From assembly GCF_001598035.1 (NCBI RefSeq), contig NZ_CP014835.1:1051001-1115000 (forward strand): 64,000 bases of DNA, read 5' to 3'. The notes below the pieces were generated by a model. It saw only the letters and a program-made list of their open reading frames with translations. It did not search any database and was not told the origin of the DNA. Numbering within the stretch: the first letter of the stretch is position 1; each line of letters opens with the position of its first letter. The translations under genes were made by a program, and so were the position numbers. The DNA comes from Streptococcus halotolerans. GTDB taxonomy: Bacteria; Bacillota; Bacilli; Lactobacillales; Streptococcaceae. Of this stretch, positions 28,328-44,900 are shown one piece after another.

Positions 28328-29718
28328 GGCTCTATAATTTCTGTAGTGGGTAAATTCCCATCGGAGATTATGGAGTCTTTTTGAATATAGCAAAAAAGTC
28401 CCATATAACTTATAATGAAAAGCAACCAAACCACTCATTAGAAAGACTTATATGGAACAACTAGATGATATCAAAGGTTCACTCGACATTAAAGACCCTA
28501 ACATCACTTTTGAAAAGCAATTTGACAAGTTCTTCACTCACAGAGAATACCGTGCCCTGTTTGTCAAGGAAAAATGACAAAGTACGATTTCCAAAAGCCT
28601 TGCAAAATTCCCTATTTGGAAATGGCGGGTTGTAAAGTACTGATTCGTCTCAAAAAGCGTCGCTTCAAATGTCAAGCGTGTGGGAAAATGGCTGTCGCTA
28701 AGACCTCTCTAGTCAGAGAAAATCATCAGATTCCCAACATCATTAACCACAAAATCACCGACAAACTCATGAGCCGTGAAGCAATGACAAAAATCGCTGA
28801 AGACCTGTCTGTTTCTGTCTCAACCGTCTATCGGCAACTCAACCGCTTTGAGTGCAAGACCGATTTAACCTGGTTACCTGAGAACATGTCCTGGGATGAG
28901 TATGCTTTCAAGAAGGGAAAGCTGAGCTTTATTGCCCAAGATTTCGATGCTAACAAGATTATCGCTATCCTTGATGGGCGGACGCAAGCTGTCATCAGAA
29001 ATCATTTCATGCGGTATTCTCACAAGGTGCGCTGTCGTGTCAAAGTCATCACCATGGATATGTTTAGTCCCTATTATGACATCGCTAAGACACTATTTCC
29101 TAAGGCGAAGATTGTACTTGATAGGTTCCACATTGTTCCACATTTATCTCGTGCCATGAACCGTTTCCGTATCCAAATCATGAACCAATTTGAGCGTCAA
29201 TCTCACGACTATAAGGCCTTAAAACGTTACTGGAAACTCATCCAACAAGACAGTCTAAAACTCAATGATAAACGATTTTATCGTCCGACTTTTCGCATGC
29301 ACTTGACCGATCAGGAGATTGTGCAAACGTCTTTTGGGCCACTCTGATGAACGACGCCACCACTATGACCTCTTCCAATGCCTTCTCTTTCATTTCCAAG
29401 AAAAGCAGGAGAAACACTTCTTTGAACTCATTTCTGATACCATCAAAACAGGTCCATCCCATCTTCAAGACCGTCTTGTCAACCTTTCTAAAAGACAAAG
29501 AGAAGATTATTAATGCCTTGAAACTACCTTATTCCAACGCTAAACTAGAGGCGACCAACAACCTTATTAAAGTCATTAAGCGAAATGCTTTTGGCTTTAG
29601 GAAGATGAAAACTTCAAAAAACGGATTTATCTTGCTTTGAATACAACAAAAGAGAAGACCAAACTGGTCCTCTCTCGGTGTTAACTATAAGTCAACCCAC
29701 TACAGTTGACAAAGAGCC
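28328..29718 (+). mobile_element. ISL3-family element, decayed copy 1
   Basis: 1391 bp with imperfect terminal repeats (GGCTCT...CTGTAGTGGGT at both ends). It is flanked by a perfect 8-bp duplication ATTAAAAA (28320-28327 and 29719-29726), the usual ISL3 target size. Compared with copy 2 (39279-40696) it has an internal deletion of ~28 bp near 28555 and single-base indels near 29324, 29445 and 29605. It inserted at the A-tract of the terminator downstream of mtsR. Confidence 0.93.
28452..29684 (+). pseudogene. Transposase of ISL3 copy 1, frameshifted
   Basis: Reads as the same transposase as 39403-40662 but broken. The zinc-finger segment CPDCQGKM is largely deleted, frame is lost again where GTGCAAACG replaces GTGCAACG, and twice more later. 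The longest intact piece covers 28574-29347. Not expected to be active unless supplied in trans by copy 2. Confidence 0.92.
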
Positions 29719-29759: not shown

Positions 29760-29987
29760 AGAAATCAAAGCAGCTAATTAAAAGAACAATACATCATCAT
29801 TTTTCATTTCTTATTATGGGCCTATAGCCACGTCATTTTGTTGCCCATTATACCTAAAACCTACCAAATGCGCATGCGAGGAAGTGTTGATAATTGGACG
29901 AGTCTTTTTACCATTTGACAATCCTAGAAAAACAGCTGTCACCAATCTAGAAAGTAAAAAACATTGCACCAGCGACGACTAGACAAA

Positions 29988-30006
29988 CGCTTGGGAACAG
30001 CGGAAG
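29988..30006 (+). repeat. TRD-start repeat (AWEQRK site), inverted copy
   Basis: CGCTTGGGAACAGCGGAAG, opposite in orientation to the copies at 31962-31980, 34188-34206 and 34809-34827. With flanking bases it matches the second-TRD site of hsdS (34188-34206) best, over about 22 bp. Confidence 0.85.
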
Positions 30007-30445
30007 TTTGGAGATTTAGCTAAAATAAGACGTGGCTTAACTTACAAGCCTAACGATGTTTCAGATAATGGCATTCGTGTTTTAAGGTCCTCAAACATAA
30101 ATGAAGATACTTTTGTCATCAGAGATGATGATGTTTTCGTAAATCCAACAGCGGTTAATATTACTTCTGTCAAAGAAAAGGATATTTTAATTACTTCTGC
30201 AAATGGTTCTAGTCGTTTAGTTGGAAAACATGCACTAATACAAAATGTTGAGCAAGAAATGGTTCACGGTGGATTTATGCTAATTGCAACTGCAAAAAAT
30301 CCCTACTTTGTGAATACTCTCATGAGTTCGGCTTGGTATGATAAATTTATAAATTCCTATGTTTTAGGTGGGAATGGTGCTATTGGCAATTTAAGCAAAA
30401 AAGATCTAGAAGAACAGATTGTTTCTGTTCCAAGCAACCCAGCCG

Positions 30446-30511
30446 AACAAACCTTCATCGGTACCTTCTTCTCCACCCTTGACACCCTCATCACCCTTCA
30501 TCAGCGTGAGT
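30446..30511 (+). repeat. TRD-end repeat (TFFSTLD..LITLHQR site), inverted copy
   Basis: About 65 bp encoding IGTFFSTLDTLITLHQRE, inverted relative to copies at 31499-31562, 33715-33780 and 34304-34370. The last ~20 bp match the end of TRD1 of hsdS most closely. Confidence 0.8.
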
Positions 30512-30534
30512 AAAATTTGCTAAAAATTTAGCAG

Positions 30535-31467
30535 TTAACTTAGGTTTGATAGCGACCGCATAACCAAGTCAATATCTTGATTTTCTAATTCTTGAATGAT
30601 GTGTAGATAAGTTTTTTGAGTAGTCGTCATACTTGCGTGCCCAAGCCTCCTAGCGACACTTGCAATAGATACTCCACCGAACAATAATAAGGACGCATGC
30701 GTATGACGTAGTCCATGTATAGAAATTATTGGGATATTTGATTTCTCGCATAATCGTGTCAGCACACCATTTACAGTAGAATTATAAATTTTCTTAGAAG
30801 AGGGCACAAAAATGGGCTGGTTTTCTGGCAGATTTTTGACTAATTCAGAAAACTGGATGACAGTCTGCCAATCAATCTGAATTTTTCGAATAGAGGAACG
30901 ATTTTTAGTTGGTAAAAACCCCCCTTTTCCCTTATAATCCCAAGTTTTTGAAATAGATAACATTTGGTGAGAGAAATCAAAATCTTTGGGAGTTAATGCA
31001 AGTGCTTCTGAAAATCGCATACCTGTTTTTGCTACAAGTAGAATAAACCAATCCCAATTTATTTGATTACCTAAATGAAGATTCGTAAGTAATGTATGCA
31101 GTTCAAATTGATTTAAATATTTTATTTTTTTCTCACGTGGTGTTTTCCCTTTTATAATGGCTTTTCTGGTTGGATCTCGATCGATGAGACCTTCATCCAC
31201 GGCATCTAATATTGCCCCTTTTAGTTGATGATGAAAATCCATAGTAGTTTGACGTTCATGCTCTTGTGCATAATCATTAAGAAGTTGTTGGTAGGATATT
31301 CGTGTTAATTCTTGGATGGTTAAATGCGGAACCAATAAGACTAACCATTTATGAGTCATTAAATATTTTGCCATCGTTACATTTCGAATTGCTCCTTCTT
31401 TATAAATTGTTATCCATTTCTTATAATACACATGAAACAAATCATTTTTTGTAATTTCATTCAGCAT
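30535..31467 (-). CDS. Tyrosine recombinase of the hsdS locus
   Basis: A 310-residue tyrosine integrase. The catalytic set is visible: Arg in TGMRFSEALAL (~155), His-x-x-Arg in HGLRHTHASLL (~262), GHASMTTTQKTYLH with the second His and the nucleophile Tyr (~290). The N-terminal SAM-like DNA-binding domain is present. It resembles the CreX/PsrA-type enzymes that switch hsdS alleles in S. pneumoniae-type loci. The start overlaps the silent hsdS cassette by 7 nt; GGAGG lies 6 nt upstream. It stands between two oppositely oriented cassettes. Confidence 0.92.
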   Translation of the reverse strand: MLNEITKNDLFHVYYKKWITIYKEGAIRNVTMAKYLMTHKWLVLLVPHLTIQELTRISYQQLLNDYAQEHERQTTMDFHHQLKGAILDAVDEGLIDRDPTRKAIIKGKTPREKKIKYLNQFELHTLLTNLHLGNQINWDWFILLVAKTGMRFSEALALTPKDFDFSHQMLSISKTWDYKGKGGFLPTKNRSSIRKIQIDWQTVIQFSELVKNLPENQPIFVPSSKKIYNSTVNGVLTRLCEKSNIPIISIHGLRHTHASLLLFGGVSIASVARRLGHASMTTTQKTYLHIIQELENQDIDLVMRSLSNLS

Positions 31468-31498
31468 TTTTTTCCTCCATAAATAAAATTAGGCTGAT

Positions 31499-31562
31499 AC
31501 TCACGCTGATGAAGGGTGATGAGGGAGTCAAGAGTGGAGAAGAAAGTGCCAATGGTGGTTTG
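31499..31562 (-). repeat. TRD-end repeat, copy in truncated cassette
   Basis: Encodes TIGTFFSTLDSLITLHQRE on the minus strand; direct relative to hsdS copies and inverted relative to 30446-30511. Confidence 0.8.
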
Positions 31563-31961
31563 CTCTTCTTGAAATTTTGGGAAGAAAAAATCTGCTGTGG
31601 ATACTTGGCTCCAATCTGAACGTGGCATTTTCGTACCAGTAGATAAGTTAGATACAGTTTGATATTTCGACGTTTGTATTAAAGTATAAATATATTGTTG
31701 ACTAACTTTACTAGATCGCAGTACCCACCAGTCACCAACAGCAATTCCTCTAAAATCTGCTAAAAGCCAGTTTTTAAGATATGGACGAAGCTTTCCAAAT
31801 AATATATCCCCCACCTCAAATAATATACCTTTCTTATTACTACTCTTTAAATATATATTCTTATTCAATTGACCTTGACCAGAAATAATATCTTCATACT
31901 CTACACGTGGCAGCCCTGCTTTCCCACTTGTTTGTGATACTCTTTCCACCACTTCCCTCAA

Positions 31962-31980
31962 CTTCCGCTGTTCCCAAGCG
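31962..31980 (-). repeat. TRD-start repeat, copy in truncated cassette
   Basis: CGCTTGGGAACAGCGGAAG on the minus strand. The preceding bases (TTTACTTT) also match the first-TRD site of hsdS, so the original allele was probably cut here. Confidence 0.85.
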
Positions 31981-31985
31981 AAAGT

Positions 31986-32018
31986 AAAAGGAGCAAGAAA
32001 TCTTTTCTTGCTCCTTTT
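31986..32018. terminator. Terminator after hsdM
   Basis: A perfect 15-bp stem (AAAAGGAGCAAGAAA) with a 3-nt loop and T-rich tails on both strands, 9 nt after the hsdM stop. It insulates the active hsd operon from the downstream cassette. Confidence 0.88.
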
Positions 32019-32026
32019 GACGCTCC

Positions 32027-33646
32027 TTATTTCCCAAATAAATTGATAAATTTTGTCAATTCTTCTTGTGCTTCATCTGTTGTACCCTTAAGTGAGCCTA
32101 GGAGCTTGAATAACTCACGGGAAGATTGCTCGATTTCTGCTTGTACCTGTTGTAACTCCTGCGCTACTTCTGATAATGGTGGTAGTTCCTCCTCTTCAAA
32201 GGTATCAACATAACGCGGAATGTTTAAGTTATAATCATTTTCTTTGATTTCATCAAGCGTTGCGACATGTGCATATTTTTCAACATCTTCTCGGTTGCGA
32301 TAAATCTCAATTATCTTGTCGATATTTTCGCTTGATAGCTTGTTTTGATTTTTTCCTTTTTCAAACTCTCTAGACGCGTCAATAAACAGAATATCCTTCT
32401 TATTACCACGCGCTTCTCGTCCTTTAAAGACTAGGACACAGGTTGGGATACTGGTTCCGTAAAAGAGGTTAGCTGGTAAGCCAATCACGGCATCCAGCAA
32501 ATTTTCATGGATGATATTTTTACGAATTTTCCCTTCTGATGCACCACGAAACAGCACCCCATGTGGCAAAACAATAGCCATTGTCCCTGTTTTTTCTAAG
32601 TGATATAAACCATGCAAGATAAAGGCATAGTCTGCTTTTGAGGCTGGGGCTACACCAAAGCCTTTAAAGCGTGTATCCTTCTCACGATCGATATTTTTAA
32701 TATCCCATTTTTGAGAGTAAGGAGGATTAGCCACGACTGCATCAAATTTCAAAGGGATTTGGACGCCATTTTTTTCCGCAAAAGGCCAGTCAGCATCTAA
32801 GGTATCTGCACGCTTGAGAGTCATATTTCGGTAATTGACTCCGTGCATCATCAAGTTCATGCGCGCCAAATTATAGGTTGTCGTGTTTCGCTCCTGTCCA
32901 TAAAAATTGACTGATCCATTCTCACTTCCGTGTGGCAATTCTTTTTGAACCGTTAGAAGAAGCGAACCAGATCCCATTGTTGGGTCATAGACATGGAATT
33001 GTTCGTCTGATTGTCCGGCATCCATGGTGACTAATTTTGCCAGAATTTTGCTGACTTCATGAGGGGTATAGAACTCTCCCCCTTTTTTTCCAGCATTGGC
33101 AGCAAATTGTCCAATCAAGTACTCATAGACATCTCCTAGAATGTCTTTTCCTGACTCATCTTTAAAATCAAATTCATGAATCATCAAAACAATGTCGTTT
33201 AGGGCTTTCGCACGCTCATTTGTAGAAGACCCCAGACGAGTATCTCCTAGATTGACATCTGAAAAAACATTCGCAAAATCATCCGCTGCTACTGGATTGC
33301 GCTTGGCGTTCATATTGAAGGAATCAAACATATCTTGAAAATCACTAGCTTTGATTTTATGATGTTCGATTTTTGAGACCATTTTCTCCCAAATATAATC
33401 TGGATCGATGGCATAGCCAATGCCTCGTGAGATTTCTTCAAGATACTCTTCTTTTTCCTCGGCATCTGTGACTTCATAAAATTCTTCTAAATGATTTGTC
33501 TTCAAATAGTCGTCTTGATTTTCTGATAGATAACGATAGAACATAAAGGGAAGAATATAGTTCTTGTATTCGCTTGCGTCCATGGTTCCACGCAATTTAT
33601 TGGCCATTCCCCATAATTTTGATGTAATTTCATTCGCATTTGCCAT
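32027..33646 (-). CDS. hsdM: HsdM, type I adenine-N6 methyltransferase subunit
   Basis: A 539-residue DNA methyltransferase. The N-terminal HsdM domain (LRGTMDASEYKNYILPFMFYRYLS) is followed by the catalytic domain with SAM-binding DPTMGSGSLLL (~215) and the catalytic motif FDAVVANPPYSQKW (NPPY, ~305), then TCVLVFKGREARGNKKDILFI and a C-terminal coiled helix that contacts HsdS. It lies 16 nt after hsdS with RBS AAGGAAAGGA and shares its transcript, so operon order is hsdR-hsdS-hsdM. Confidence 0.96.
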   Translation of the reverse strand: MANANEITSKLWGMANKLRGTMDASEYKNYILPFMFYRYLSENQDDYLKTNHLEEFYEVTDAEEKEEYLEEISRGIGYAIDPDYIWEKMVSKIEHHKIKASDFQDMFDSFNMNAKRNPVAADDFANVFSDVNLGDTRLGSSTNERAKALNDIVLMIHEFDFKDESGKDILGDVYEYLIGQFAANAGKKGGEFYTPHEVSKILAKLVTMDAGQSDEQFHVYDPTMGSGSLLLTVQKELPHGSENGSVNFYGQERNTTTYNLARMNLMMHGVNYRNMTLKRADTLDADWPFAEKNGVQIPLKFDAVVANPPYSQKWDIKNIDREKDTRFKGFGVAPASKADYAFILHGLYHLEKTGTMAIVLPHGVLFRGASEGKIRKNIIHENLLDAVIGLPANLFYGTSIPTCVLVFKGREARGNKKDILFIDASREFEKGKNQNKLSSENIDKIIEIYRNREDVEKYAHVATLDEIKENDYNLNIPRYVDTFEEEELPPLSEVAQELQQVQAEIEQSSRELFKLLGSLKGTTDEAQEELTKFINLFGK

Positions 33647-33662
33647 AATTTATTTCCTTTCC

Positions 33663-34880
33663 TTAAATAAACATTTGTTTTAAGAGTGTTTTTTTCAATT
33701 TTTTCAGCAATTCACACTTACGTTGATGAAGGGTGATGAGGGAGTCAAGAGTGGAGAAGAAAGTGCCAATGGTGGTTTGTTCTGGAAGAGCAGGATAAAA
33801 AATGGGAATTAATTTTAAATCTGATGAATTTATCGCTGGATAGCTTGTTCCAGTACAATTATCCAAAACAATTCTTACAAATTTTTCTAACTGAACTGCA
33901 GATAATAAAAAATAACTATTGCCTTTCGGACGCAATTGAGCATAACCTGTTGAAAACACAAAATCATCATCATTTAAGTTAAATAAATAATTATTTTTTT
34001 GATACGGACGAACAGTTTGATAAAAAACATCTCCTTTTTTAGCAACTCGTTGGGCTCTTGAAGGCGCCAATTCTTTTATTACTTCCTTATAAGAAACTAA
34101 TTCTGTTCCTATAACAGACTCCAAATCTACATATTTAAAAATACTTGGTACATCTGATTTGGGATTTAGTTCCGCCACCTCCCCCAACTTCCGCTGTTCC
34201 CAAGCGTCCGTAAATCCATCAAAACGAAACTCTGGCGTTACCTCACCATTTTTAGGAAACATCTTTTGTAAGAAAATTCGTTTTATATCACCCAAACGGT
34301 CACACTCACGCTGATGAAGGGTGATGAGATTGTCGAGGGTGGAGAAGAAAGTGCCGATGGTGGTTTGTTCAGCTGGATTGCTTGGAATTTTTAAACCAAT
34401 TTTTTCAATAGCTTTACTATTTAAAGATGGTAAAGCTCCTGTTTGTGCAAACTTAGGCAAGTGAATAGTTTCAAAAATAGTTTTGGCAAAATAGGTGTCC
34501 CAAGATTTAGCCAATATGTAAGCCATCGTATTATTATCAATTAAAAAATCGTTTAAAACTAATCGTTTGCGATTTAACAATAACGCCGCACCTACTTTGG
34601 CAAATATAATTGCAGGTGTAGTTTTTATAACCTTCCACTTATTATTTTTAATCTGTTCTTCCGTAACATAATGATTAGCTATTTGCATGACTAACTCATT
34701 TCCATTTAAATTCATATCTGAAACTTTATAGAAAGGAATACCAAATTTTCCGCCTTGTTCATGTTCAGGAAAGCCTATGCCTGAGACAGTTTCCCCTATC
34801 TCCCCCAACTTCCGCTGTTCCCAAGCGGAAGTAAATCCTTTAAAACGAATCAAAGGTTCTTTGTTTATTTTTTCATTCAT
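33663..34880 (-). CDS. hsdS: HsdS, type I specificity subunit (intact, expressed copy)
   Basis: The start at 34880 (MNEKINKEPLIRFKGFTSAWEQRKLGE) follows AAAAGGAGAG; an earlier GTG at 34934 lacks a site. The 405-residue protein has two TRDs: TRD1 (~25-170) between AWEQRKLGEIGE and TIGTFFSTLDNLITLHQRE, a spacer helix (CDRLGDIKRIFLQKMFPKNGEVTPEFRFDG, split here: CDRLGDIKR...), and TRD2 (~225-385) between AWEQRKLGEVAEL and TIGTFFSTLDSLITLHQRK. The bipartite target depends on both TRDs. Repeats at the four TRD borders match two silent cassettes. Confidence 0.95.
   Translation of the reverse strand: MNEKINKEPLIRFKGFTSAWEQRKLGEIGETVSGIGFPEHEQGGKFGIPFYKVSDMNLNGNELVMQIANHYVTEEQIKNNKWKVIKTTPAIIFAKVGAALLLNRKRLVLNDFLIDNNTMAYILAKSWDTYFAKTIFETIHLPKFAQTGALPSLNSKAIEKIGLKIPSNPAEQTTIGTFFSTLDNLITLHQRECDRLGDIKRIFLQKMFPKNGEVTPEFRFDGFTDAWEQRKLGEVAELNPKSDVPSIFKYVDLESVIGTELVSYKEVIKELAPSRAQRVAKKGDVFYQTVRPYQKNNYLFNLNDDDFVFSTGYAQLRPKGNSYFLLSAVQLEKFVRIVLDNCTGTSYPAINSSDLKLIPIFYPALPEQTTIGTFFSTLDSLITLHQRKCELLKKLKKTLLKQMFI
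33715..33780 (-). repeat. TRD-end repeat of hsdS TRD2
   Basis: Encodes TIGTFFSTLDSLITLHQRK. It differs from the TRD1 copy at several third-codon positions and in the last codons, so recombination there would leave detectable junctions. Confidence 0.8.
34188..34206 (-). repeat. TRD-start repeat of hsdS TRD2
   Basis: CGCTTGGGAACAGCGGAAG on the minus strand, preceded by AC as in the inverted cassette at 29988-30006. Confidence 0.85.
34304..34370 (-). repeat. TRD-end repeat of hsdS TRD1
   Basis: Encodes TIGTFFSTLDNLITLHQRE; its last ~20 bp equal the end of the inverted cassette. Confidence 0.8.
34809..34827 (-). repeat. TRD-start repeat of hsdS TRD1
   Basis: CGCTTGGGAACAGCGGAAG on the minus strand, 53 nt inside the hsdS coding region; flanking bases resemble the truncated cassette at 31962-31980. 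Confidence 0.85.
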
Positions 34881-34945: not shown

Positions 34946-37900
34946 TTATTCTCCCTGCTTAATTTTATCCGCCATATCATAAAATGCCTTGCGTAACTCA
35001 ATACGGTATCTCACCCAAGATAATTGAGCGACTAGCTCTTCAGCAATCTCCTTGTAATCTGCACGCGCTTCATTCATAAGAGCCGTAAGCTCTCCTTGCC
35101 TATCCATATCTTCTTGACCTAACTGGTGTTTGCTAATCAATTTCATCAGTTCCCGAGGATTTGTACTATTGTCCAAACCCCACTTCCGAATAAAATCTGT
35201 CACTAGCTTGAGATGACTCTCTTTTTGAACTTTCTCCATAGCTGCATTCATCGTCTCAACATCACGAGGAGCAGGATAAGTATCAAAAACGAAACTTCCA
35301 TCAAAAATCTTATCAACGAAATGGCGCACTTTGGCTTTTTCTTTCTCATTGTCAGATTTAGCAATTTCAACCTGAATTTCTTGATGTGTATGACTGGCTT
35401 TTTCCATCTGATTCGCATGAATTTCATCTGCCATTTTGGCAATCAAGTCTACCAAATAATCATAATTGATTGTAACATCATGAATATGAACCATAGCTAG
35501 GCTTACTTGAGAAATATCAACATTGTCCCGTTTAGCACGTCTTTCTTTTAATTCTCCAGCAATAACCGTCGTGAGCCTCACTTCTTGTTCATGCGTTATT
35601 CCAATCCGCTGGTAAAACATTTCTGGGTCTTCATATGCTGAAATTTTTTGCCCTTCTTCATCTTCTGTGTATTGTTTTAGCTGACTGAGCAAGCGATTAT
35701 ACTCTTTCAACTCTTCAAATACTTCATCTTGCGCTTTTTCACTCGGCGGCAACTCCATGAAAGTATTGGTTAAGGTAGATAAGTTTTGAACAACCTTTTG
35801 CATCTTTGTTTGAACAGTATTAAAGGGCTTTGAAATAATCTGTGCGTCTTCATTGCCTTTTTTTAGGTCATCGAGGGATAATTGCTCATCGGCAGAAGAA
35901 CGGTTGGAATAAATGGCAAAGGCCTTATTCATTTCATATTCATTTTGCTTTGGCCAACGATAGTTCACCACATTTCCCCATGGCTTATCAACCAAATTGT
36001 GCATGCGATTGGTCCTAGAATAAGCCTGAATGAGATTTCCGCCTTTTAATGTCCGATCCACATATAAGGTATTCATCTCTGGAGCATCAAATCCTGTTAA
36101 GAGCTGATCTACGACAATCGCAAGATCCAAATACTTCCCATCATCTGCCGTTTTATTTAACCTTCGAGCCAAATCTTCCGTATACTGCTTGACACTGGTC
36201 ATGTCAAAAGCCGTTCCAAACAGCTGATTGTAGGCCTTGATTGCACGATGAAGATTTTCATTTGTTTTCAATTGATTCGCCCCATTGGATGTATCTGCTG
36301 AAAAACTAATAGCTACTTTTAACTTGTCCTCATCTGCCTTTGTAGCATTGACAGCCGCAAACCGATCAAAATATTCCATAGCACGAGGGGTGCTGGCTCT
36401 ATTGCCACCAACATGCACGGTGAAAAGAGCATTGTATTTACGGTTATTAGATCGCTCCTTCCAATGTTCAAAAATATCTTTTACGACTAAATCAACATGC
36501 TCCGGACTATCATCATAGACACTTGCACGAATCCGATCATCTATCTCTTCTTCTGTCGGATTTTCAGGCGCCTCAATCGTTTCCTTAAATTCTACATTAA
36601 AGCCCAATACATTTTTATCAGCGATCGCTTCCTTAATCGTATAGGCATGCAGAAGTTCGCCAAAAATAGTAGGTGTTTCAGGAAATTTTGGAGTGCCTGT
36701 ATAACCAACCCAAGCAGCATGAGGGAAGGCTCTACGAATGGATTCCAGCATTCCTTCATTGTCACTTCCGTCTCCAGTAGAACGATGTGCTTCATCCACA
36801 ATGAATAAGATATGGTCTGACAAAGGCTTAAATCGCTCTTTTGCAACATAACGCGACATTTTTTGGATACTGGTCACGATGATATTCTTATCACTCTTTT
36901 GGGTCAACTTTCGATGTAAGTCGGCTATATTGGCTGTATCACTGATCACACCTGTCTTTCCCTCAAAGCCTGACACAGGATCATACGCTTGATAAGCATC
37001 CACTGTTTGATTGGTAAGAGCAATCCGATCGACCAAAAAGATGACTTTATGGACATTTGATAAGCGGCTCGCAAGCCATGCTGTTTTAAAACTGGTAATG
37101 GTTTTTCCCGAACCAGTTGTATGCCAGATGTACCCTAGCTTACCATCGTCATATTGGAAATCAAAGGCACGCACCTTATCAAGCACTCGCTTGGTCGCAT
37201 ACACTTGGTAAGGACGCATTACCTTGATACTTTCCTTATTTTTGGTGCCATCAAGTACCATATAGCGGGTTGATAGCTCATGAGCCATTGGAATGGATAG
37301 AACCTTGTCAGCAAAAACCTTCCAATCTCCCACACGATGAGCATCTTCTTCATTTTGCCAATGAAAAGCGAAAGCACGATTGAACTTATCTAAAGTCGTA
37401 TTGGCCATATAACGAATTTCATGAGGCGTCATCGCAATGAGGATTTGCAGAGTAGAAAAGATATCACTATACTGCTTTTCAGCAATATACTGCTCCATTT
37501 GATTTAAGGCTTCCGTTACACTATGTAATGCTTTTTTCAGTTCAATTTGAATAATAGGAAGGCCGTTTATGAGCAGAGTAACATCAAAACGGCGATTTAG
37601 TTTTCCATCAACGACCTTTGGTCGTTCAATCTGATTGACGACTTGATAAACAGTATTGCCACCACCGACTTGAGCTTGATCAAAAACTGTTAGAAAGACA
37701 TGCTTCCCGTTATCTAGATCAATTTCAATTTCTGAAACACCATTAACTCCATATAGGAATTGTCCCGCTTTATATGGCGTATCAATATCTGATATTACTT
37801 TTTTTACTTGATTGAATTCTGTAACGGTTAGCGGTTCATCCAAACGAGCCTTATTATTTTGCTCAAGAATTCGTTTGAAATTGTCCCATAAATCATCTGT

Positions 37901-38002
37901 TGTCTTAATCGTTTTCTTATACTCCCACTGTTTTACTCCTCCAATTTTTGTCAAATAATCAATGACTTCCATCTCAAACGCTAATTCAGACTGACTTTTC
38001 AT
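34946..38002 (-). CDS. hsdR: HsdR, type I restriction endonuclease/translocase subunit
   Basis: A 1018-residue motor and nuclease subunit. Seen: the N-terminal PD-(D/E)xK nuclease region (VTLLINGLPIIQIELKKA, ~145-160), helicase Walker A YIWHTTGSGKTITSF (~295), DEAH box FIVDEAHRS (~405), motif III GYTGTP (~435), and C-terminal helicase motifs VDQLLTGFDAP and YSRTNRMH. It cuts DNA after ATP-driven translocation when bound to the HsdM-HsdS core. Its start lies 4 nt after the half-HsdS gene; hsdS follows. Confidence 0.96.
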   Translation of the reverse strand: MKSQSELAFEMEVIDYLTKIGGVKQWEYKKTIKTTDDLWDNFKRILEQNNKARLDEPLTVTEFNQVKKVISDIDTPYKAGQFLYGVNGVSEIEIDLDNGKHVFLTVFDQAQVGGGNTVYQVVNQIERPKVVDGKLNRRFDVTLLINGLPIIQIELKKALHSVTEALNQMEQYIAEKQYSDIFSTLQILIAMTPHEIRYMANTTLDKFNRAFAFHWQNEEDAHRVGDWKVFADKVLSIPMAHELSTRYMVLDGTKNKESIKVMRPYQVYATKRVLDKVRAFDFQYDDGKLGYIWHTTGSGKTITSFKTAWLASRLSNVHKVIFLVDRIALTNQTVDAYQAYDPVSGFEGKTGVISDTANIADLHRKLTQKSDKNIIVTSIQKMSRYVAKERFKPLSDHILFIVDEAHRSTGDGSDNEGMLESIRRAFPHAAWVGYTGTPKFPETPTIFGELLHAYTIKEAIADKNVLGFNVEFKETIEAPENPTEEEIDDRIRASVYDDSPEHVDLVVKDIFEHWKERSNNRKYNALFTVHVGGNRASTPRAMEYFDRFAAVNATKADEDKLKVAISFSADTSNGANQLKTNENLHRAIKAYNQLFGTAFDMTSVKQYTEDLARRLNKTADDGKYLDLAIVVDQLLTGFDAPEMNTLYVDRTLKGGNLIQAYSRTNRMHNLVDKPWGNVVNYRWPKQNEYEMNKAFAIYSNRSSADEQLSLDDLKKGNEDAQIISKPFNTVQTKMQKVVQNLSTLTNTFMELPPSEKAQDEVFEELKEYNRLLSQLKQYTEDEEGQKISAYEDPEMFYQRIGITHEQEVRLTTVIAGELKERRAKRDNVDISQVSLAMVHIHDVTINYDYLVDLIAKMADEIHANQMEKASHTHQEIQVEIAKSDNEKEKAKVRHFVDKIFDGSFVFDTYPAPRDVETMNAAMEKVQKESHLKLVTDFIRKWGLDNSTNPRELMKLISKHQLGQEDMDRQGELTALMNEARADYKEIAEELVAQLSWVRYRIELRKAFYDMADKIKQGE

Positions 38003-38006
38003 ATGG

Positions 38007-38582
38007 CTATCTCTCCTTTATACTTTCTTCTATCACTTGAGAAACAATAGTCTCGGTTAATACTGCATATCGCTTCAAGTAAGTTTTTAATCTTAGAGTC
38101 TCACTGTAAGCTTCTCCTATTTTAATTTGTTCTTCCAAATCAACTACTGGAATCATTAATTGATTTAACAGTTTAACGGAAAGACGTAAAATGGAAGCTC
38201 CTTGAAGATCTCTTTCTTTTTGACGTTGCACCTCGCTGTATGAGTTAAAAAGATAAAGAAAATAAAGTTTATCTAACTTATCTCCTTTAAATTCTACTTT
38301 TATAAAATTAAGTGTAGGCACTTTTCCTTCATTTGATGCACTAACAATAGCTGCCTTCTGCAGAGAATTACTAATGATAACATCTCCTTGTCGAAGAGAC
38401 AACTTATCTGAAACATCATCTACAGTCTTTTTGCTAACCAAATCCGCTTCAAAGCTATAATCTTTCTCAAATGCTTCTTGATCATAGTAATGAAAGATGT
38501 TACTACCATATTGCCTCTTAGCTCTTGTTGGATTGACCCCCGCCACAAACGATACAAAATCACTCATTTGCCTTTTTTCCAT
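38007..38582 (-). CDS. Half-length HsdS-like protein with one TRD
   Basis: The start is set at 38582 (MEKRQMSDFVSFVAG) because GGAG lies 6 nt upstream; a GTG four codons earlier is possible. The 191-residue protein has one S-subunit TRD fold: VAGVNPTRAKRQYG, LRQGDVIISNSLQKAAIVS (the common GDIL-like motif), FNSYSEVQRQKERDLQGASILRLS and QLMIPVVDLEEQIKIGEAYSETLRLK. It lacks a second TRD and the AWEQ/TFFSTLD repeats, so it is not a shuffling cassette. It is first in the hsd operon. It may assist or modulate the complex; function not established. Confidence 0.75.
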   Translation of the reverse strand: MEKRQMSDFVSFVAGVNPTRAKRQYGSNIFHYYDQEAFEKDYSFEADLVSKKTVDDVSDKLSLRQGDVIISNSLQKAAIVSASNEGKVPTLNFIKVEFKGDKLDKLYFLYLFNSYSEVQRQKERDLQGASILRLSVKLLNQLMIPVVDLEEQIKIGEAYSETLRLKTYLKRYAVLTETIVSQVIEESIKER

Positions 38583-39278
38583 ATTTTTCTCCACGTTTTT
38601 CTGTAATATGATTATATTCTACTAGTTTAAAGGTGTTTTGTCAATATTTTTTTGTAATATATATATATTACTAGATAAACTTGAGAATTTTTAGAAAGTA
38701 CAGTCTAACTTCTCATGGTAAACGCTTTATCTTCTATACTATCTTCAACATAATATTGCAAAAACAGATGTCTAAAATGTCATTATTATGGATTTGGATG
38801 AAGTGAAAAACACGTTCTAAAATAGTGTCTCTAAATGAAAATCAAACGTAGACAAGGCGACACCGACACAGATAGAACTGAAGTTCATCCAATCAAATCA
38901 ACAGCGTCTTCATTTAATTACCGAAGAGTATAAGCTCATCACAGTAAGATAGCTACTATTATTTATTGTTTTTAACATCAAAAAAAAGAGAACCAATTAG
39001 ATTCTCTTACCATTACGATTGTCAAACATCTTTTACAGTTAAGTCTTACATTTTCAAGTTCTCCACCATATTGAGGACTTGTTTACGTTATAAAAAGAGT
39101 CAAGAAGAGCTCTAACAAAGAAAGGAACAGACTTCGTTCTTTGATTGCTGAACCCAGGCTAAAGTAATCTACTAGATTCTTTTAGCCCACTTTCAGTTGA
39201 TGATGCCTTCTTCGGAGCTTAAAAAGCGAATGTCATAACAAGCAAATACTGCGTCAACTTGATTACACTAAAATAAGT
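38583..39278. other. Non-coding tract upstream of the hsd operon
   Basis: About 700 bp with no convincing gene. It must hold the hsd operon promoter at the left; an AT-rich stretch with TATATATATT at ~38660 lies there. It contains a BOX-like repeat (38833-38932) and a small hairpin AAGAGAA/TTCTCTT (38986-39009). The rest resembles decayed sequence. Confidence 0.6.
38833..38932 (+). repeat. BOX-like dispersed repeat, copy 1
   Basis: Starts AAATGAAAATCAAACGTAGA, includes AAGGCGACACCGAC and GATAGAACTGAAGTTCATC, and ends GAAGAGTATA. Opposite-strand copies lie at 45601-45716 and 55662-55768. The layout (ATGAAAATC start, AAGGCGACGC core, GAAGAGTATA end) resembles streptococcal BOX elements. Confidence 0.65.
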
Positions 39279-40696
39279 GGCTCTATAATTTCTGTAGTGG
39301 GTAAATTCTTCTCGGAGATTATGGAGTCTTTTTGAATATAGCAAAAAAGTCCCATATGACTTATAATGAAGAGCAACCAAACCACTCATTAGAAAGACTC
39401 ATATGGAACAATTAGATTATATCAAAGAGTCGCTTGACATTAAAGACCCTAACATCACTTTTGAAAAGACATTTGACAAGTTCTTCACTCACAGAGAGTA
39501 TCATGCCAAGTTAGATTATGATGCCCCGCAATGCCCTGATTGTCAAGGAAAAATGACAAAGTACGATTTCCAAAAGCCTTGCAAAATTCCCTATCTGGAA
39601 ATGGCGGGTTGTAAAGTACTGATTCGTCTCAAAAAGCGTCGCTTCAAATGTCAAGCGTGTGGGAAAATGGCTGTCGCTAAGACCTCTCTAGTCAGAGAAA
39701 ATCATCAGATTCCCAACATCATTAACCACAAAATCACCGACAAACTCATGAGCCGTGAAGCAATGACAAAAATCGCTGAAGACCTGTCTATCTCTGTGTC
39801 AACTGTCTATCGGCAACTCAACCGCTTTGAGTGCAAGACCGATTTAACCTGGTTACCTGAGAACATGTCCTGGGATGAGTATGCTTTCAAGAAGGGAAAG
39901 ATGAGCTTTATTGCCCAAGATTTCGATGCTAACAAGATTATCGCTATCCTTGATGGGCGGACGCAAGCTGTCATCAGAAATCATTTCATGCGGTATTCTC
40001 ACAAGGTGCGCAGTCGTGTCAAAGTCATCACCATGGATATGTTTAGTCCCTATTATGACATCGCTAAGCAACTGTTTCCTAAGGCGAAGATTGTTCTCGA
40101 TAGGTTCCACATTGTTCAACAGTTATCTCGTGCTATGAACCGTCTCCGTATCCAAATCATGAACCAATTTGAGCGTCAATCTCACGACTATAAGGCCTTG
40201 AAACGTTACTGGAAACTCATCCAACAAGATAGTCGTAACCTAAACGATAAACGGTTTTATCGTCCAACTTTTCGCATGCACTTGACCAATCAAGAGATTG
40301 TGCAACGTCTTTTGAACTACTCTGATGAGCTACGTCACCACTATGAACTCTTCCAATGCCTTCTCTTTCATTTCCAAGAAAAGCAGGAGAAACACTTCTT
40401 TGAACTCATTTCTGATACCATCAAACAGGTCCATCCCATCTTCAAGACCGTCTTGTCAACCTTTCTAAAAGACAAAGAGAAGATTATTAATGCTCTGAAA
40501 CTACCTTATTCCAATGCCAAACTAGAGGCCACCAACAACCTTATTAAAGTCATTAAGCGAAATGCTTTTGGCTTTAGGAACTTCGAAAACTTCAAAAAAC
40601 GGATTTATCTTGCTTTGAACACAACAAAAGAGAAGACCAAACTGGTCCTCTCTCGGTGTTAGCTATAAGTCAACCCACTACAGTTGACAAAGAGCC
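39279..40696 (+). mobile_element. ISL3-family element, intact copy 2
   Basis: 1418 bp with the same imperfect terminal repeats as copy 1 (GGCTCT...CTGTAGTGGGT). It is flanked by a perfect 8-bp duplication AAATAAGT (39271-39278 and 40697-40704). It encodes one complete transposase. The insertion abuts the stem of the mtnN terminator. Confidence 0.95.
39403..40662 (+). CDS. ISL3-family transposase, intact
   Basis: A 419-residue transposase with an N-terminal zinc finger (CPDCQGKM...RRFKCQACGKMA), a helix-turn-helix (MTKIAEDLSISVSTVYRQL, ~130) and the DDE domain: first Asp in SWDEYAFKKG, second in VITMDMFSPYYDIAKQLFPKAKIVLDRFHIV, catalytic Glu in SNAKLEATNNLIKVIKR. It is about the normal ISL3 length and appears active. 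Resembles IS1167/IS1193-type enzymes of streptococci. Confidence 0.95.
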   Translation: MEQLDYIKESLDIKDPNITFEKTFDKFFTHREYHAKLDYDAPQCPDCQGKMTKYDFQKPCKIPYLEMAGCKVLIRLKKRRFKCQACGKMAVAKTSLVRENHQIPNIINHKITDKLMSREAMTKIAEDLSISVSTVYRQLNRFECKTDLTWLPENMSWDEYAFKKGKMSFIAQDFDANKIIAILDGRTQAVIRNHFMRYSHKVRSRVKVITMDMFSPYYDIAKQLFPKAKIVLDRFHIVQQLSRAMNRLRIQIMNQFERQSHDYKALKRYWKLIQQDSRNLNDKRFYRPTFRMHLTNQEIVQRLLNYSDELRHHYELFQCLLFHFQEKQEKHFFELISDTIKQVHPIFKTVLSTFLKDKEKIINALKLPYSNAKLEATNNLIKVIKRNAFGFRNFENFKKRIYLALNTTKEKTKLVLSRC

Positions 40697-43931: not shown

Positions 43932-44900
43932 CTATGACGTCATGCTTTCTGCTGCAGCTTCTAGAACTGTCATCACGGATAGGCTGTGAGCTAAGGCTTT
44001 TTTCGCCTGATCCCTATTTCTATTAGCTAGCATCTTTTCAAAGGCAACAAATTCTGCATGCATACGATGGTGATTGCTATTATGATTCATCACTTCGGGC
44101 TCTTGACCATTCAGGGCAAGACTAATTTCTGGCATAGTATTTGTGGCACCAAGCACCGCCATAGAACCCTGGTTTCCTTGGATAGTCGACTTAATGTCGG
44201 CACTACAATCTTTAGCACCAATACAAACTGCCTTGAATTTCCCATAATCAAGCACCAAAATGCCTGAGGTATCCACACCTCTCTCCATGTTTGGCAAATA
44301 CTCAACCCGCTCAGGTTGTCCAAATAGACCAACAACAAAATGAATGTTGTAGATATTAAGATCACGCAGAGCCCCGCCACCTTTGGCTGGATCAAACGCT
44401 GGAGCGATTTCTCCACGCTTAAAGGCGTCATAGCGTGATGAATATTGAGAGTAATTACAATTCACAATCTTGATCTCACCCAGCTGATCGAGCTCATTTT
44501 TGATATAGGTGAAATTCTCTAAATATTGATTCGTAATAGCTTCCAGTAAGAAAAGTCCTTTCTCTTCTGCTAGAGCAATCAGGTCTTTTAATTCTGCCAA
44601 ACGCAAGGTAAATGGTTTTTCACAGATAACATGTTTACCCGCTTCAAGTGCTTTCTTGGCATAGTCATAATGCAAATGGTTAGGAAGTCCAACATAAACC
44701 GTATCCACGTCTGAATTGCTCAGTATATCATCGTAATCGCTGCTTGCCTGAGGAATATCATAGGTTTCTGCTAAATCACGCGCTGTTTCAATAGACCTCG
44801 GTGTCGACATAATAGCTTCTAAGCTAATCCCCTCAATCTCTCTTAAGACTGGTAAAACCTCCTTGACAATCATACCAGTGCCTAATAATGCTAATTTCAT
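43932..44900 (-). CDS. Gfo/Idh/MocA-family oxidoreductase
   Basis: A 322-residue NAD(P)-dependent oxidoreductase. Seen: Rossmann start LALLGTGMIVKEVLP, DTVYVGLPNHLHYDYAKKAL, the family signature HVICEKPFTLRLAEL (EKP lysine, ~93) and the GGGALRDLNIYNIHF segment holding the catalytic region. The substrate is probably a sugar or inositol derivative but cannot be inferred. It stands alone, facing a 900-bp non-coding tract upstream. Confidence 0.88.
   Translation of the reverse strand: MKLALLGTGMIVKEVLPVLREIEGISLEAIMSTPRSIETARDLAETYDIPQASSDYDDILSNSDVDTVYVGLPNHLHYDYAKKALEAGKHVICEKPFTLRLAELKDLIALAEEKGLFLLEAITNQYLENFTYIKNELDQLGEIKIVNCNYSQYSSRYDAFKRGEIAPAFDPAKGGGALRDLNIYNIHFVVGLFGQPERVEYLPNMERGVDTSGILVLDYGKFKAVCIGAKDCSADIKSTIQGNQGSMAVLGATNTMPEISLALNGQEPEVMNHNSNHHRMHAEFVAFEKMLANRNRDQAKKALAHSLSVMTVLEAAAESMTS

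What the first reader, a model, noticed from the sequence alone, without database searches (positions are those of the whole stretch)
29988..34880. Phase-variable type I restriction-modification locus with two silent hsdS cassettes and its own recombinase
Seen: one intact two-TRD hsdS, two start-less single-TRD cassettes (31461-31980 minus; 29988-30513 plus), and a tyrosine recombinase between them. All TRD borders carry the same short repeats (CGCTTGGGAACAGCGGAAG and the TFFSTLD..LITLHQR segment). Known: recombinase-linked inverted hsdS repeats shuffle TRDs and switch genome-wide methylation in S. pneumoniae-type ivr loci. Inferred: this locus can produce several HsdS specificities.
Basis: partly seen in the sequence, partly recalled or inferred. 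Interest (0 to 1): 0.85.

Follow-up and report, generated by a model that had tools for sequence, protein, structure and literature searches.

The report
Self-shuffling restriction-modification specificity locus
A streptococcus carries a bacterial defence system that probably changes which DNA sequence it marks and cuts by swapping spare recognition modules in and out of one gene; such systems are known, but here the methylase gene sits between the working gene and its spares, and the swap points look like DNA sites shared by very distant bacteria.

Summary
In detail: one intact two-TRD hsdS, two start-less single-TRD cassettes facing a tyrosine recombinase, and the same repeats at all four TRD borders. 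Across 107 recombinase-bearing loci the TRD borders are conserved as DNA, not only as protein (TTGGGAACAGCGKAAG at the start, CTTCATCARCGTRAG at the end), and match the recombination sequences published for the inverting hsd locus of Listeria monocytogenes ST8. In 4 relatives a single cassette equals a TRD of the two-TRD hsdS, with identity ending at these borders; two have the window's gene order. Streptococcus cuniculi has the same locus with the recombinase segment inverted, and its hsdS carries a relative of the window's silent C1. The CreX core is absent from the locus. Best reading: recombinase-driven TRD-cassette exchange, probably by paired crossovers that leave hsdM in place; a new variant of a known kind. 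Switching in this strain was not observed and cannot be tested here. Against the site reading: 9 of 258 recombinase-negative streptococci also carry the start site.

The parts
38616..38644 (-). promoter-like site TTGACA-17-TAGAAT ahead of the half-S/hsdR/hsdS/hsdM unit
   Evidence: consensus match only, 11 of 12; 40 such sites in the region, 31.8 expected
38007..38594 (-). half-size HsdS-like ORF (195 aa, one Methylase_S domain), found next to hsdR in relatives
34946..38002 (-). hsdR, 1018 aa, intact
33663..34880 (-). hsdS, 405 aa, two TRDs, the only complete two-TRD specificity gene of the locus
34807..34826 (-). START site, TRD1
   Evidence: DNA-level conservation
34305..34319 (-). END site, TRD1 (CTTCATCAGCGTGAG)
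   Evidence: read; conservation
34186..34205 (-). START site, TRD2
33717..33731 (-). END site, TRD2 (CTTCATCAACGTAAG)
   Evidence: read
32027..33646 (-). hsdM, 539 aa, intact; lies between hsdS and the cassettes
31986..32018 (-). intrinsic-terminator-like hairpin after hsdM; a like sequence is present in S. cuniculi
   Evidence: S. cuniculi sequence
31461..31980 (-). silent TRD cassette C2 (START 31960-31979, END 31500-31514), no start codon
30535..31467 (-). tyrosine recombinase, 310 aa
   Evidence: 97% to S. cuniculi
29988..30513 (+). silent TRD cassette C1, inverted (START 29989-30008, END 30496-30510), no start codon, TAA right after END

Best explanation
This is a complete type I restriction-modification operon (half-S, hsdR, hsdS, hsdM) followed, beyond a terminator-like hairpin, by two silent single-TRD cassettes that point at each other with a tyrosine recombinase gene between them. 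Each of the four TRDs is a cassette bounded by a START site (GCTTGGGAACAGCGGAAGTT, read as AWEQRK) and an END site (CTTCATCARCGTRAG, read as LHQRE/K). The recombinase joins START to START and END to END. Because hsdM lies between hsdS and the cassettes, a specificity change that keeps the enzyme expressed needs both borders of a TRD to be exchanged (a cassette swap or copy), while recombination at the END sites of the two cassettes alone only flips the recombinase segment. Shown: the anatomy, DNA-level conservation of both sites, the flipped segment in S. cuniculi, and identical TRD units in a two-TRD hsdS and in a single cassette of relatives. Inferred: that this recombinase acts on these sites, that exchanges are paired, and that this strain switches (up to 12 ordered pairs of the four TRDs if each can enter either slot).
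For: Anatomy. Synonymous sites: START Q=CAG 160 of 167 (background 0.263), K=AAG 158 of 165 (0.284), E=GAA 182 of 182 (0.747); END L=CTT 105 of 105 (0.217), H=CAT 113 of 113 (0.739), Q=CAG 101 of 112, R=CGT 98 of 113 (0.262); third positions outside the sites lie at 0.32-0.73. Within-locus START 15-mers are identical in 0.754 of 187 pairs versus 0.304 of 13841 between loci; 0 of 2000 permutations. The published inversion repeats of L. monocytogenes ST8, agcttgggaacagcgt and ctatcgctcttcatcagcgtaagttagat, hold the same cores (PMC4783014, passages); an L. innocua locus with a 65% identical recombinase has both sites in inverted pairs. S. cuniculi: segment 30441-31565 inverted at 90.9%, and its hsdS TRD is a 69.7% relative of silent C1. 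In 5 of 44 loci with a two-TRD ORF and a single cassette, a single cassette is identical to a TRD of the ORF over the span compared; borders were read for 5 pairs in 4 of these (L032, L051, L132 twice, L137; not L120) and identity ends at START and END in all 5. L051 and L032 have the window's R-S-M order and their copied cassette has no start codon upstream. R and M lie on one strand in 57 of 57 loci; in 16 of them hsdM or hsdR lies between a two-TRD hsdS and an inverted cassette, and in 0 of 16 is it flipped (counted).
Against: No reads or second assembly of this strain were available, so no alternative state was seen in it; among the 120 HsdS homologues listed none but the window's own exceeds 66% identity, so no reshuffled allele of this hsdS was found. 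The START 16-mer also occurs in 9 of 258 streptococcal genomes without this recombinase, 7 of them in a WEQRK frame, the other 2 with no such frame found. Of the 10 recombinase-carrying genomes with the site, 2 (G232, G247) have it away from the recombinase. L129-L131 keep a START-like motif but no END by my rule; 27 of 107 loci have no mapped TRD, many of them short contigs. The copied cassettes of L132 and L137 have possible start codons upstream, so that they are silent is not certain. Exchange between unlike TRDs can only resolve where copies share homology, so borders at START/END do not by themselves exclude homologous recombination. Identical copies imply copying rather than a reciprocal swap. 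Loci are related, and assemblies show only the major state. Of 9 near-identical L. salivarius plasmids (recombinase 56%) 8 were fetched and all show one configuration.
Confidence: 0.73

Rival explanations
1. Simple pneumococcus-style inversion: hsdS recombines once with the inverted cassette C1 at START or END. hsdM flips with the segment and leaves the operon, so the state is a combined specificity change and ON/OFF switch.
For: hsdS and C1 share inverted repeats at both ends. Inversions at the same cores are described for L. monocytogenes ST8 (PMC4783014, passages). The recombinase segment itself is inverted between the window and S. cuniculi.
Against: 0 of 16 loci with hsdM or hsdR between a two-TRD hsdS and an inverted cassette show the flipped state; R and M are co-oriented in 57 of 57. 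Such states could be transient or selected against.
Confidence: 0.12
2. Excision and reintegration as in the pneumococcal tvr locus: direct repeats between C2 and the hsdS TRDs excise a circle carrying hsdM, which reinserts at another repeat.
For: C2 and both hsdS TRDs lie in direct orientation with identical START sites. tvr works this way (PMC6265443, abstract and passages).
Against: The circle would carry hsdM, and no ORF of 80 aa or more other than the recombinase lies between the cassettes, so no tvrAT-like pair of that size. The orientation count required both R and M, so it cannot show loss of hsdM.
Confidence: 0.08
3. Static relic: the repeats are only conserved HsdS coding motifs and the locus no longer switches.
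For: No alternative state was seen for this strain. Recombinase-negative streptococci carry the same site (9 of 258).
Against: Conservation is at synonymous sites and falls off outside the site. The recombinase ORF is intact and 97% identical to that of S. cuniculi. The recombinase segment differs in orientation between these two close loci.
Confidence: 0.07

Closest known systems
Inverting hsd locus of Listeria monocytogenes ST8/CC8 (PMC4783014) and its CC4/CC5 relatives (Lmo0320I, PMC7662400)
   Same: Tyrosine recombinase beside hsdS; the published ST8 recombination sequences contain the window's START and END cores; an inactive hsdS without proper start codon (stated for CC4).
   Different: [quoted passage not shown] the window has hsdM between hsdS and two single-TRD cassettes.
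Streptococcus cuniculi CCUG 65085 locus (L007)
   Same: Same gene order, same cassette-recombinase-cassette module, a like hairpin after hsdM; recombinase 97% identical.
   Different: Recombinase segment inverted; hsdS has one TRD (209 aa); different TRDs; different chromosomal place.
SsuCC20p of Streptococcus suis (PMC10790761)
   Same: Four TRDs, a locus recombinase required for shuffling, and TRDs that change places, for which the authors speculate on coordinated double recombination.
   Different: Its 14-bp repeat has no exact copy in the window; its hsdS is expressed from downstream of hsdM or of xerD.
Pneumococcal ivr/cod/SpnIII locus (CreX/PsrA)
   Same: Type I R-M with silent TRDs, inverted repeats and a tyrosine recombinase.
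   Different: Recombinase of another branch (25% over a 160-residue alignment), another core site (ATTATGGGAA), order hsdR-hsdM-hsdS.
Pneumococcal tvr/SpnIV locus (PMC6265443)
   Same: TRD units moved by a tyrosine recombinase.
   Different: Excision-reintegration at direct repeats, with tvrAT genes; no such ORF of 80 aa or more here.

Membership tests
Recombinase-linked phase-variable type I R-M systems | complete hsdR, hsdM and hsdS | tested here: met
Recombinase-linked phase-variable type I R-M systems | additional TRDs without start codon, sharing repeats with hsdS | tested here: met
Recombinase-linked phase-variable type I R-M systems | tyrosine recombinase gene in the locus | tested here: met
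Recombinase-linked phase-variable type I R-M systems | alternative configurations in one strain | not testable with these tools
   no reads; only a between-species difference seen
L. monocytogenes ST8-type inverting hsd locus | recombination sequences with the published START and END cores | tested here: met
   START shares gcttgggaacagcg with the published repeat; END shares cttcatcagcgt at 3 of 4 TRDs and reads cttcatcaacgt at TRD2
L. monocytogenes ST8-type inverting hsd locus | two oppositely oriented hsdS genes directly flanking the integrase | tested here: not met
   window order is R-S-M-C2-rec-C1
Pneumococcal ivr (CreX/PsrA) | CreX core ATTATGGGAA in the repeats | tested here: not met
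   no copy in the locus; the only one in the window is at 44239
Pneumococcal ivr (CreX/PsrA) | CreX orthologue | tested here: inconclusive
   recombinase-like ORFs in two of the five 3-kb loci read around CTCTTATTATGGGAA are 25% identical over a 160-residue alignment, which speaks against it; that these ORFs are CreX is inferred from the site, no named CreX sequence was compared
SsuCC20p | 14-bp repeat TAAATCATCATTTA around TRDs | tested here: not met
   no exact match; 2 matches with 2 mismatches in 64 kb, 2.19 expected
tvr/SpnIV | tvrAT toxin-antitoxin pair with the recombinase | tested here: not met
   no ORF of at least 80 aa between C2 and C1 other than the recombinase; shorter ORFs not examined
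tvr/SpnIV | circular intermediates | not testable with these tools
   needs PCR or reads

The most novel reading that the evidence does not exclude
START and END are a shared recombination code: TRDs of type I specificity genes in Firmicutes and Pasteurellaceae are mobile cassettes, integron-like, that one recombinase family inserts into slot 1, slot 2 or silent slots in either orientation and copies between them. The WEQRK and LHQRK protein motifs would then exist because they are the translation of these DNA sites, and separate loci could exchange TRDs between species.
Probability: 0.4. Interest if true: 0.75.

Novelty: new variant of a known kind. Interest (0 to 1): 0.52.

Why it matters
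Specificity switching of type I enzymes rewrites genome-wide methylation and the barrier to phages and foreign DNA. If the two border sites are the recombinase's targets, then loci with this recombinase can be read for their possible specificities from sequence alone, and TRD movement between species can be traced by exact borders. The arrangement with hsdM (or hsdR) between hsdS and its cassettes asks a direct mechanistic question: how TRDs cross an essential gene of the system without flipping it.

Tried and rejected
Near-clonal plasmids of Ligilactobacillus salivarius from badgers were fetched to look for strain-level inversions (8 of the 9 near-identical 213 kb records listed). They hold a different arrangement (one annotated S gene beside the recombinase), all 8 alike, so they show no switching and bear little on this locus. 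The SsuCC20p repeat was sought: no exact match in the window, one match in 1 of 141 loci (L044). The codon-degenerate WEQRK pattern was meant as a codon control, but a single-copy site in many streptococci outside the TTGGG context makes it unusable. The PF01420 control in 20 recombinase-negative genomes returned HsdS types that mostly lack WEQRK, so it is a weak control: in the 30 loci only L162 and L176 show a LHQRK end, and both use CTTCATCAACGTAA, i.e. the same core without this recombinase. tRNA genes were sought between 26000 and 42000 as a landing site; none found.

The composite-transposon idea for the two flanking ISL3-type elements (family name recalled) was dropped: each has its own 8-bp duplication. 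Homologous recombination as sole mechanism was considered: the START stretch shared by all four copies in the window is 20-21 nt, short for RecA (recalled), but the END repeat is longer and this was not tested.

Script faults and dropped rows: one search stopped with an error after its counts and was continued. In one search the comparisons of L125 and L081 did not align and are not used. One search counted cassette C2 twice in the window and in L007 through a one-mismatch site in the end of hsdM; later counts keep one TRD per END. In one search the single-TRD hsdS of L007 is counted as a single cassette, and L138 likewise has no two-TRD ORF by my rule; neither is in the count of 16. L063 was taken out of that count because its inverted cassette lies before hsdR. 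L141 was dropped as a duplicate of L007 before all counts. TRD maps use DNA patterns with up to one mismatch; the codon tests use protein patterns.
Full report
WHAT IS THERE. The hsd unit runs on the minus strand: half-S ORF (38007-38594), hsdR (34946-38002), hsdS (33663-34880), hsdM (32027-33646), all open and matching the expected families. A near-consensus promoter-like site lies at 38644-38616 (consensus match only). After hsdM comes a hairpin with a T-tail (31986-32018; -24.9 kcal/mol, z -5.3, 0 of 200 shuffles as stable). Beyond it lie cassette C2 (minus), the recombinase (minus, its start overlapping the tail of C2) and cassette C1 (plus). Neither cassette has a start codon in frame upstream of its TRD. 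The 20-mer GCTTGGGAACAGCGGAAGTT is present four times, once per TRD start, and nowhere else in the 64 kb within 3 mismatches; shuffles give 0. The end repeats run over about 68 nt, 88-96% identical among the direct copies.

WHERE IT COMES FROM. The genome has 2,182,100 bases in one contig and is a Streptococcus by its nearest named relatives. The neighbouring metal-binding lipoprotein is up to 87% identical to S. pluranimalium and S. hyovaginalis proteins; the species itself is not named by any search. The closest R-M locus found is that of Streptococcus cuniculi CCUG 65085 (L007): recombinase 97%, hsdM block 93.0%, hsdR block 85.7%. Among the 120 HsdS homologues listed (of 7985) none but the window's own exceeds 66% identity, so no reshuffled allele of this very hsdS was found.

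A NATURAL INVERSION. Between the window and S. cuniculi the recombinase segment is inverted: window 30441-31565 aligns to L007 11027-9900 at 90.9%, while hsdM, hsdR and the outer flank of C1 stay in register. The breakpoints fall inside the TRD-end repeats that flank the recombinase; the repeat is too similar to place them more finely. The S. cuniculi hsdS in that assembly has only one TRD (209 aa), and this TRD is a 69.7% relative, over 525 nt, of the window's silent C1. So a TRD type that is silent in one locus stands in the complete hsdS of the other.

THE BORDERS ARE DNA SITES. I examined 107 loci: the window, 80 from a genome scan with the recombinase (the best 80 of 392 that encode a relative) and 26 of the 27 streptococcal regions fetched (one dropped as a duplicate of L007). 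Protein patterns, not DNA patterns, were used here to find TRD starts and ends. Starts: 185 sites in 73 of 107 loci, a few of them false. Ends: 113 sites in 57 of 107 loci. At starts, glutamine is CAG in 160 of 167, lysine AAG in 158 of 165, glutamate GAA in 182 of 182; in the coding sequence just downstream these codons make up 0.263, 0.284 and 0.747 of their amino acids. The residue before the tryptophan varies (A, D, S, P, T, V and others) but its third base is T in 179 of 185. The third base of the arginine codon is less fixed (T in 127, G in 51 of 185). At ends, leucine is CTT in 105 of 105 (background 0.217), histidine CAT in 113 of 113 (0.739), glutamine CAG in 101 of 112 and arginine CGT in 98 of 113 (0.262). 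Third positions on either side lie at 0.32-0.73, highest just before the END core. Recent shared ancestry would keep the neighbours too, so this points to selection on the DNA. Start and end share the half CAGCGT(A/G)AG. Copies within a locus resemble each other more than copies of other loci: identical 15-mers in 0.754 of 187 within-locus pairs against 0.304 of 13841 between-locus pairs, 0 of 2000 permutations.

THE SAME SITES ARE KNOWN TO INVERT. A text search for the two cores, their complements and two peptides returned 19 papers; by title only one concerns such loci, PMC4783014. Its passages give the two recombination sequences of the L. monocytogenes ST8 hsd locus, agcttgggaacagcgt and ctatcgctcttcatcagcgtaagttagat. 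Six ST8 genomes with 61 SNPs and indels in all are co-linear except for a 3.3-kb inversion in this locus, the inversion that the paper assigns to the first repeat, and four variants occur among the ST8 genomes it examined. The first repeat shares gcttgggaacagcg with the window's START, the second holds the window's END core. An L. innocua locus with two S genes around the integrase has a recombinase 65% identical to the window's and both sites in inverted pairs. I did not see in print that these sites are conserved across phyla; of my searches only asked for the sequences, and figures, supplements and subscription papers are not covered.

TRDs MOVE AS EXACT UNITS. Mapping TRDs as START-to-END units (DNA patterns, up to one mismatch each) gives at least one in 80 of 107 loci; 44 have both a two-TRD ORF and a single cassette. 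In 5 of the 44 (L032, L051, L120, L132, L137) a single cassette is identical to a TRD of the two-TRD ORF over the span compared. Borders were read for five pairs in four of them (L132 twice, L051, L137, L032; not L120). On the left, identity runs 2 to 7 nt beyond TGGGAACAGCG; on the right it ends within or just after the END core. In L032 the END copies already differ at their ninth base, which, if the unit moved in one event, puts that crossover upstream of it. L051 (Volucribacter) and L032 (a Clostridiaceae isolate) have the window's R-S-M-cassette-recombinase order and their copied cassette has no start codon upstream; those of L132 and L137 have possible ones. So TRDs do pass hsdM in such loci. 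TRD1 equals TRD2 (99.6-100%) in L060, L081 and L125, and L120 carries the same TRD four times. L124 and L128 hold the same two TRDs (99.0-99.4%) in opposite slots.

HOW IT PROBABLY WORKS HERE. If hsdS recombined once with inverted C1, hsdM would flip and leave the operon. In 57 loci with hsdR, hsdM and recombinase found, R and M lie on the same strand in 57 of 57, whereas the recombinase is opposite to M in 34 and the same in 23; within the R-S-M-recombinase class it is 8 and 7. In 16 loci a gene (hsdM in 6, hsdR in 10) lies between a two-TRD hsdS and an inverted cassette, and in 0 of 16 is it flipped (from; L063, whose inverted cassette lies before hsdR, is not counted). I infer that the productive event exchanges both borders of a TRD, by two crossovers or by copying. 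The identical copies favour a non-reciprocal step in at least some cases. Place-switching of TRDs has been reported for SsuCC20p, where the authors speculate on coordinated double recombination (PMC10790761, abstract, sections 5, 6 and 11, passages). The same paper states that, to its authors' knowledge, in earlier systems only the hsdS directly downstream of hsdM was transcribed and used; in the window the complete hsdS lies upstream of hsdM.

WHAT IT IS NOT. The CreX core published for SpnIII (ATTATGGGAA; PMC6620402, passages) is not in the locus. In 3 streptococcal genomes CTCTTATTATGGGAA occurs in inverted pairs about 1.1 kb apart. The five 3-kb loci read from them hold no START or END site, and recombinase-like ORFs in two of these loci are 25% identical to the window's over a 160-residue alignment; that they are CreX is inferred. 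The SsuCC20p 14-bp repeat has no exact copy in the window. No ORF of 80 aa or more besides the recombinase lies between the cassettes.

RESULTS AGAINST THE READING. START 16-mers occur in 10 of 26 recombinase-carrying and 9 of 258 recombinase-negative streptococcal genomes (Fisher p 3.7e-7): linked but not exclusive, and in 2 of the 10 (G232, G247) the site lies away from the recombinase. In 7 of the 9 negative genomes the site lies in a WEQRK frame, 5 of them with an END-like motif nearby; in the other 2 no such frame was found. In the control loci of recombinase-negative genomes (30 loci) two HsdS ends also use the CTTCATCAACGTAA core. Lost or distant recombinases could explain this, or the sites may be kept for another reason. 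L129-L131 have START-like motifs but no END by my rule. Loci are related, the codon tests treat them as independent, and assemblies report one state. No read data exist here, so switching in this strain is not shown. In the 8 near-clonal L. salivarius plasmid records fetched, the locus did not vary.

VERDICT. The locus is real and intact, and most likely a working TRD-cassette exchanger of the L. monocytogenes ST8 site type, in an arrangement that differs from the described ones I read. Interest lies less in this locus than in the shared sites and in how TRDs cross hsdM.

Noticed in passing
window 38007-38594: Half-size HsdS-like ORF at the head of the operon. tblastn finds a relative in 22 other loci (12, 10, duplicate L141 left out), beside hsdR; its role is unknown.
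   Followed up: partly
window 28328-29718 and 39279-40696: Two ISL3-type transposase elements (family recalled) flank the locus in the same orientation. The left one has a broken transposase frame; each has its own 8-bp duplication (ATTAAAAA; AAATAAGT), so they are separate insertions.
   Followed up: yes
window 29828-30014: About 190 bp outside C1 match (75.5%) the stretch between a response-regulator gene (WalR-like, recalled) and the cassette in S. cuniculi, although that gene is not beside the locus here: the locus seems to have moved with part of its old flank.
   Followed up: partly
L007 13106-13735: The S. cuniculi hsdS has a single TRD (209 aa), which might act as a dimer or be the product of a deletion between TRD borders.
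   Followed up: no
L060, L081, L125: Both slots of hsdS hold the same TRD (99.6-100% identical), which would predict a symmetrical target sequence.
   Followed up: no
L120 5469-11642: The same TRD occurs four times, three of them in tandem on the strand opposite to hsdM.
   Followed up: no
L124 and L128: Two streptococcal species hold the same two TRDs (99.0-99.4%) in swapped slots.
   Followed up: partly
Streptococcus genomes: A single copy of TGGGAACAGCGTAAGTT not preceded by T occurs in many streptococci (for example G008, G032, G117-G123); the gene was not identified.
   Followed up: no
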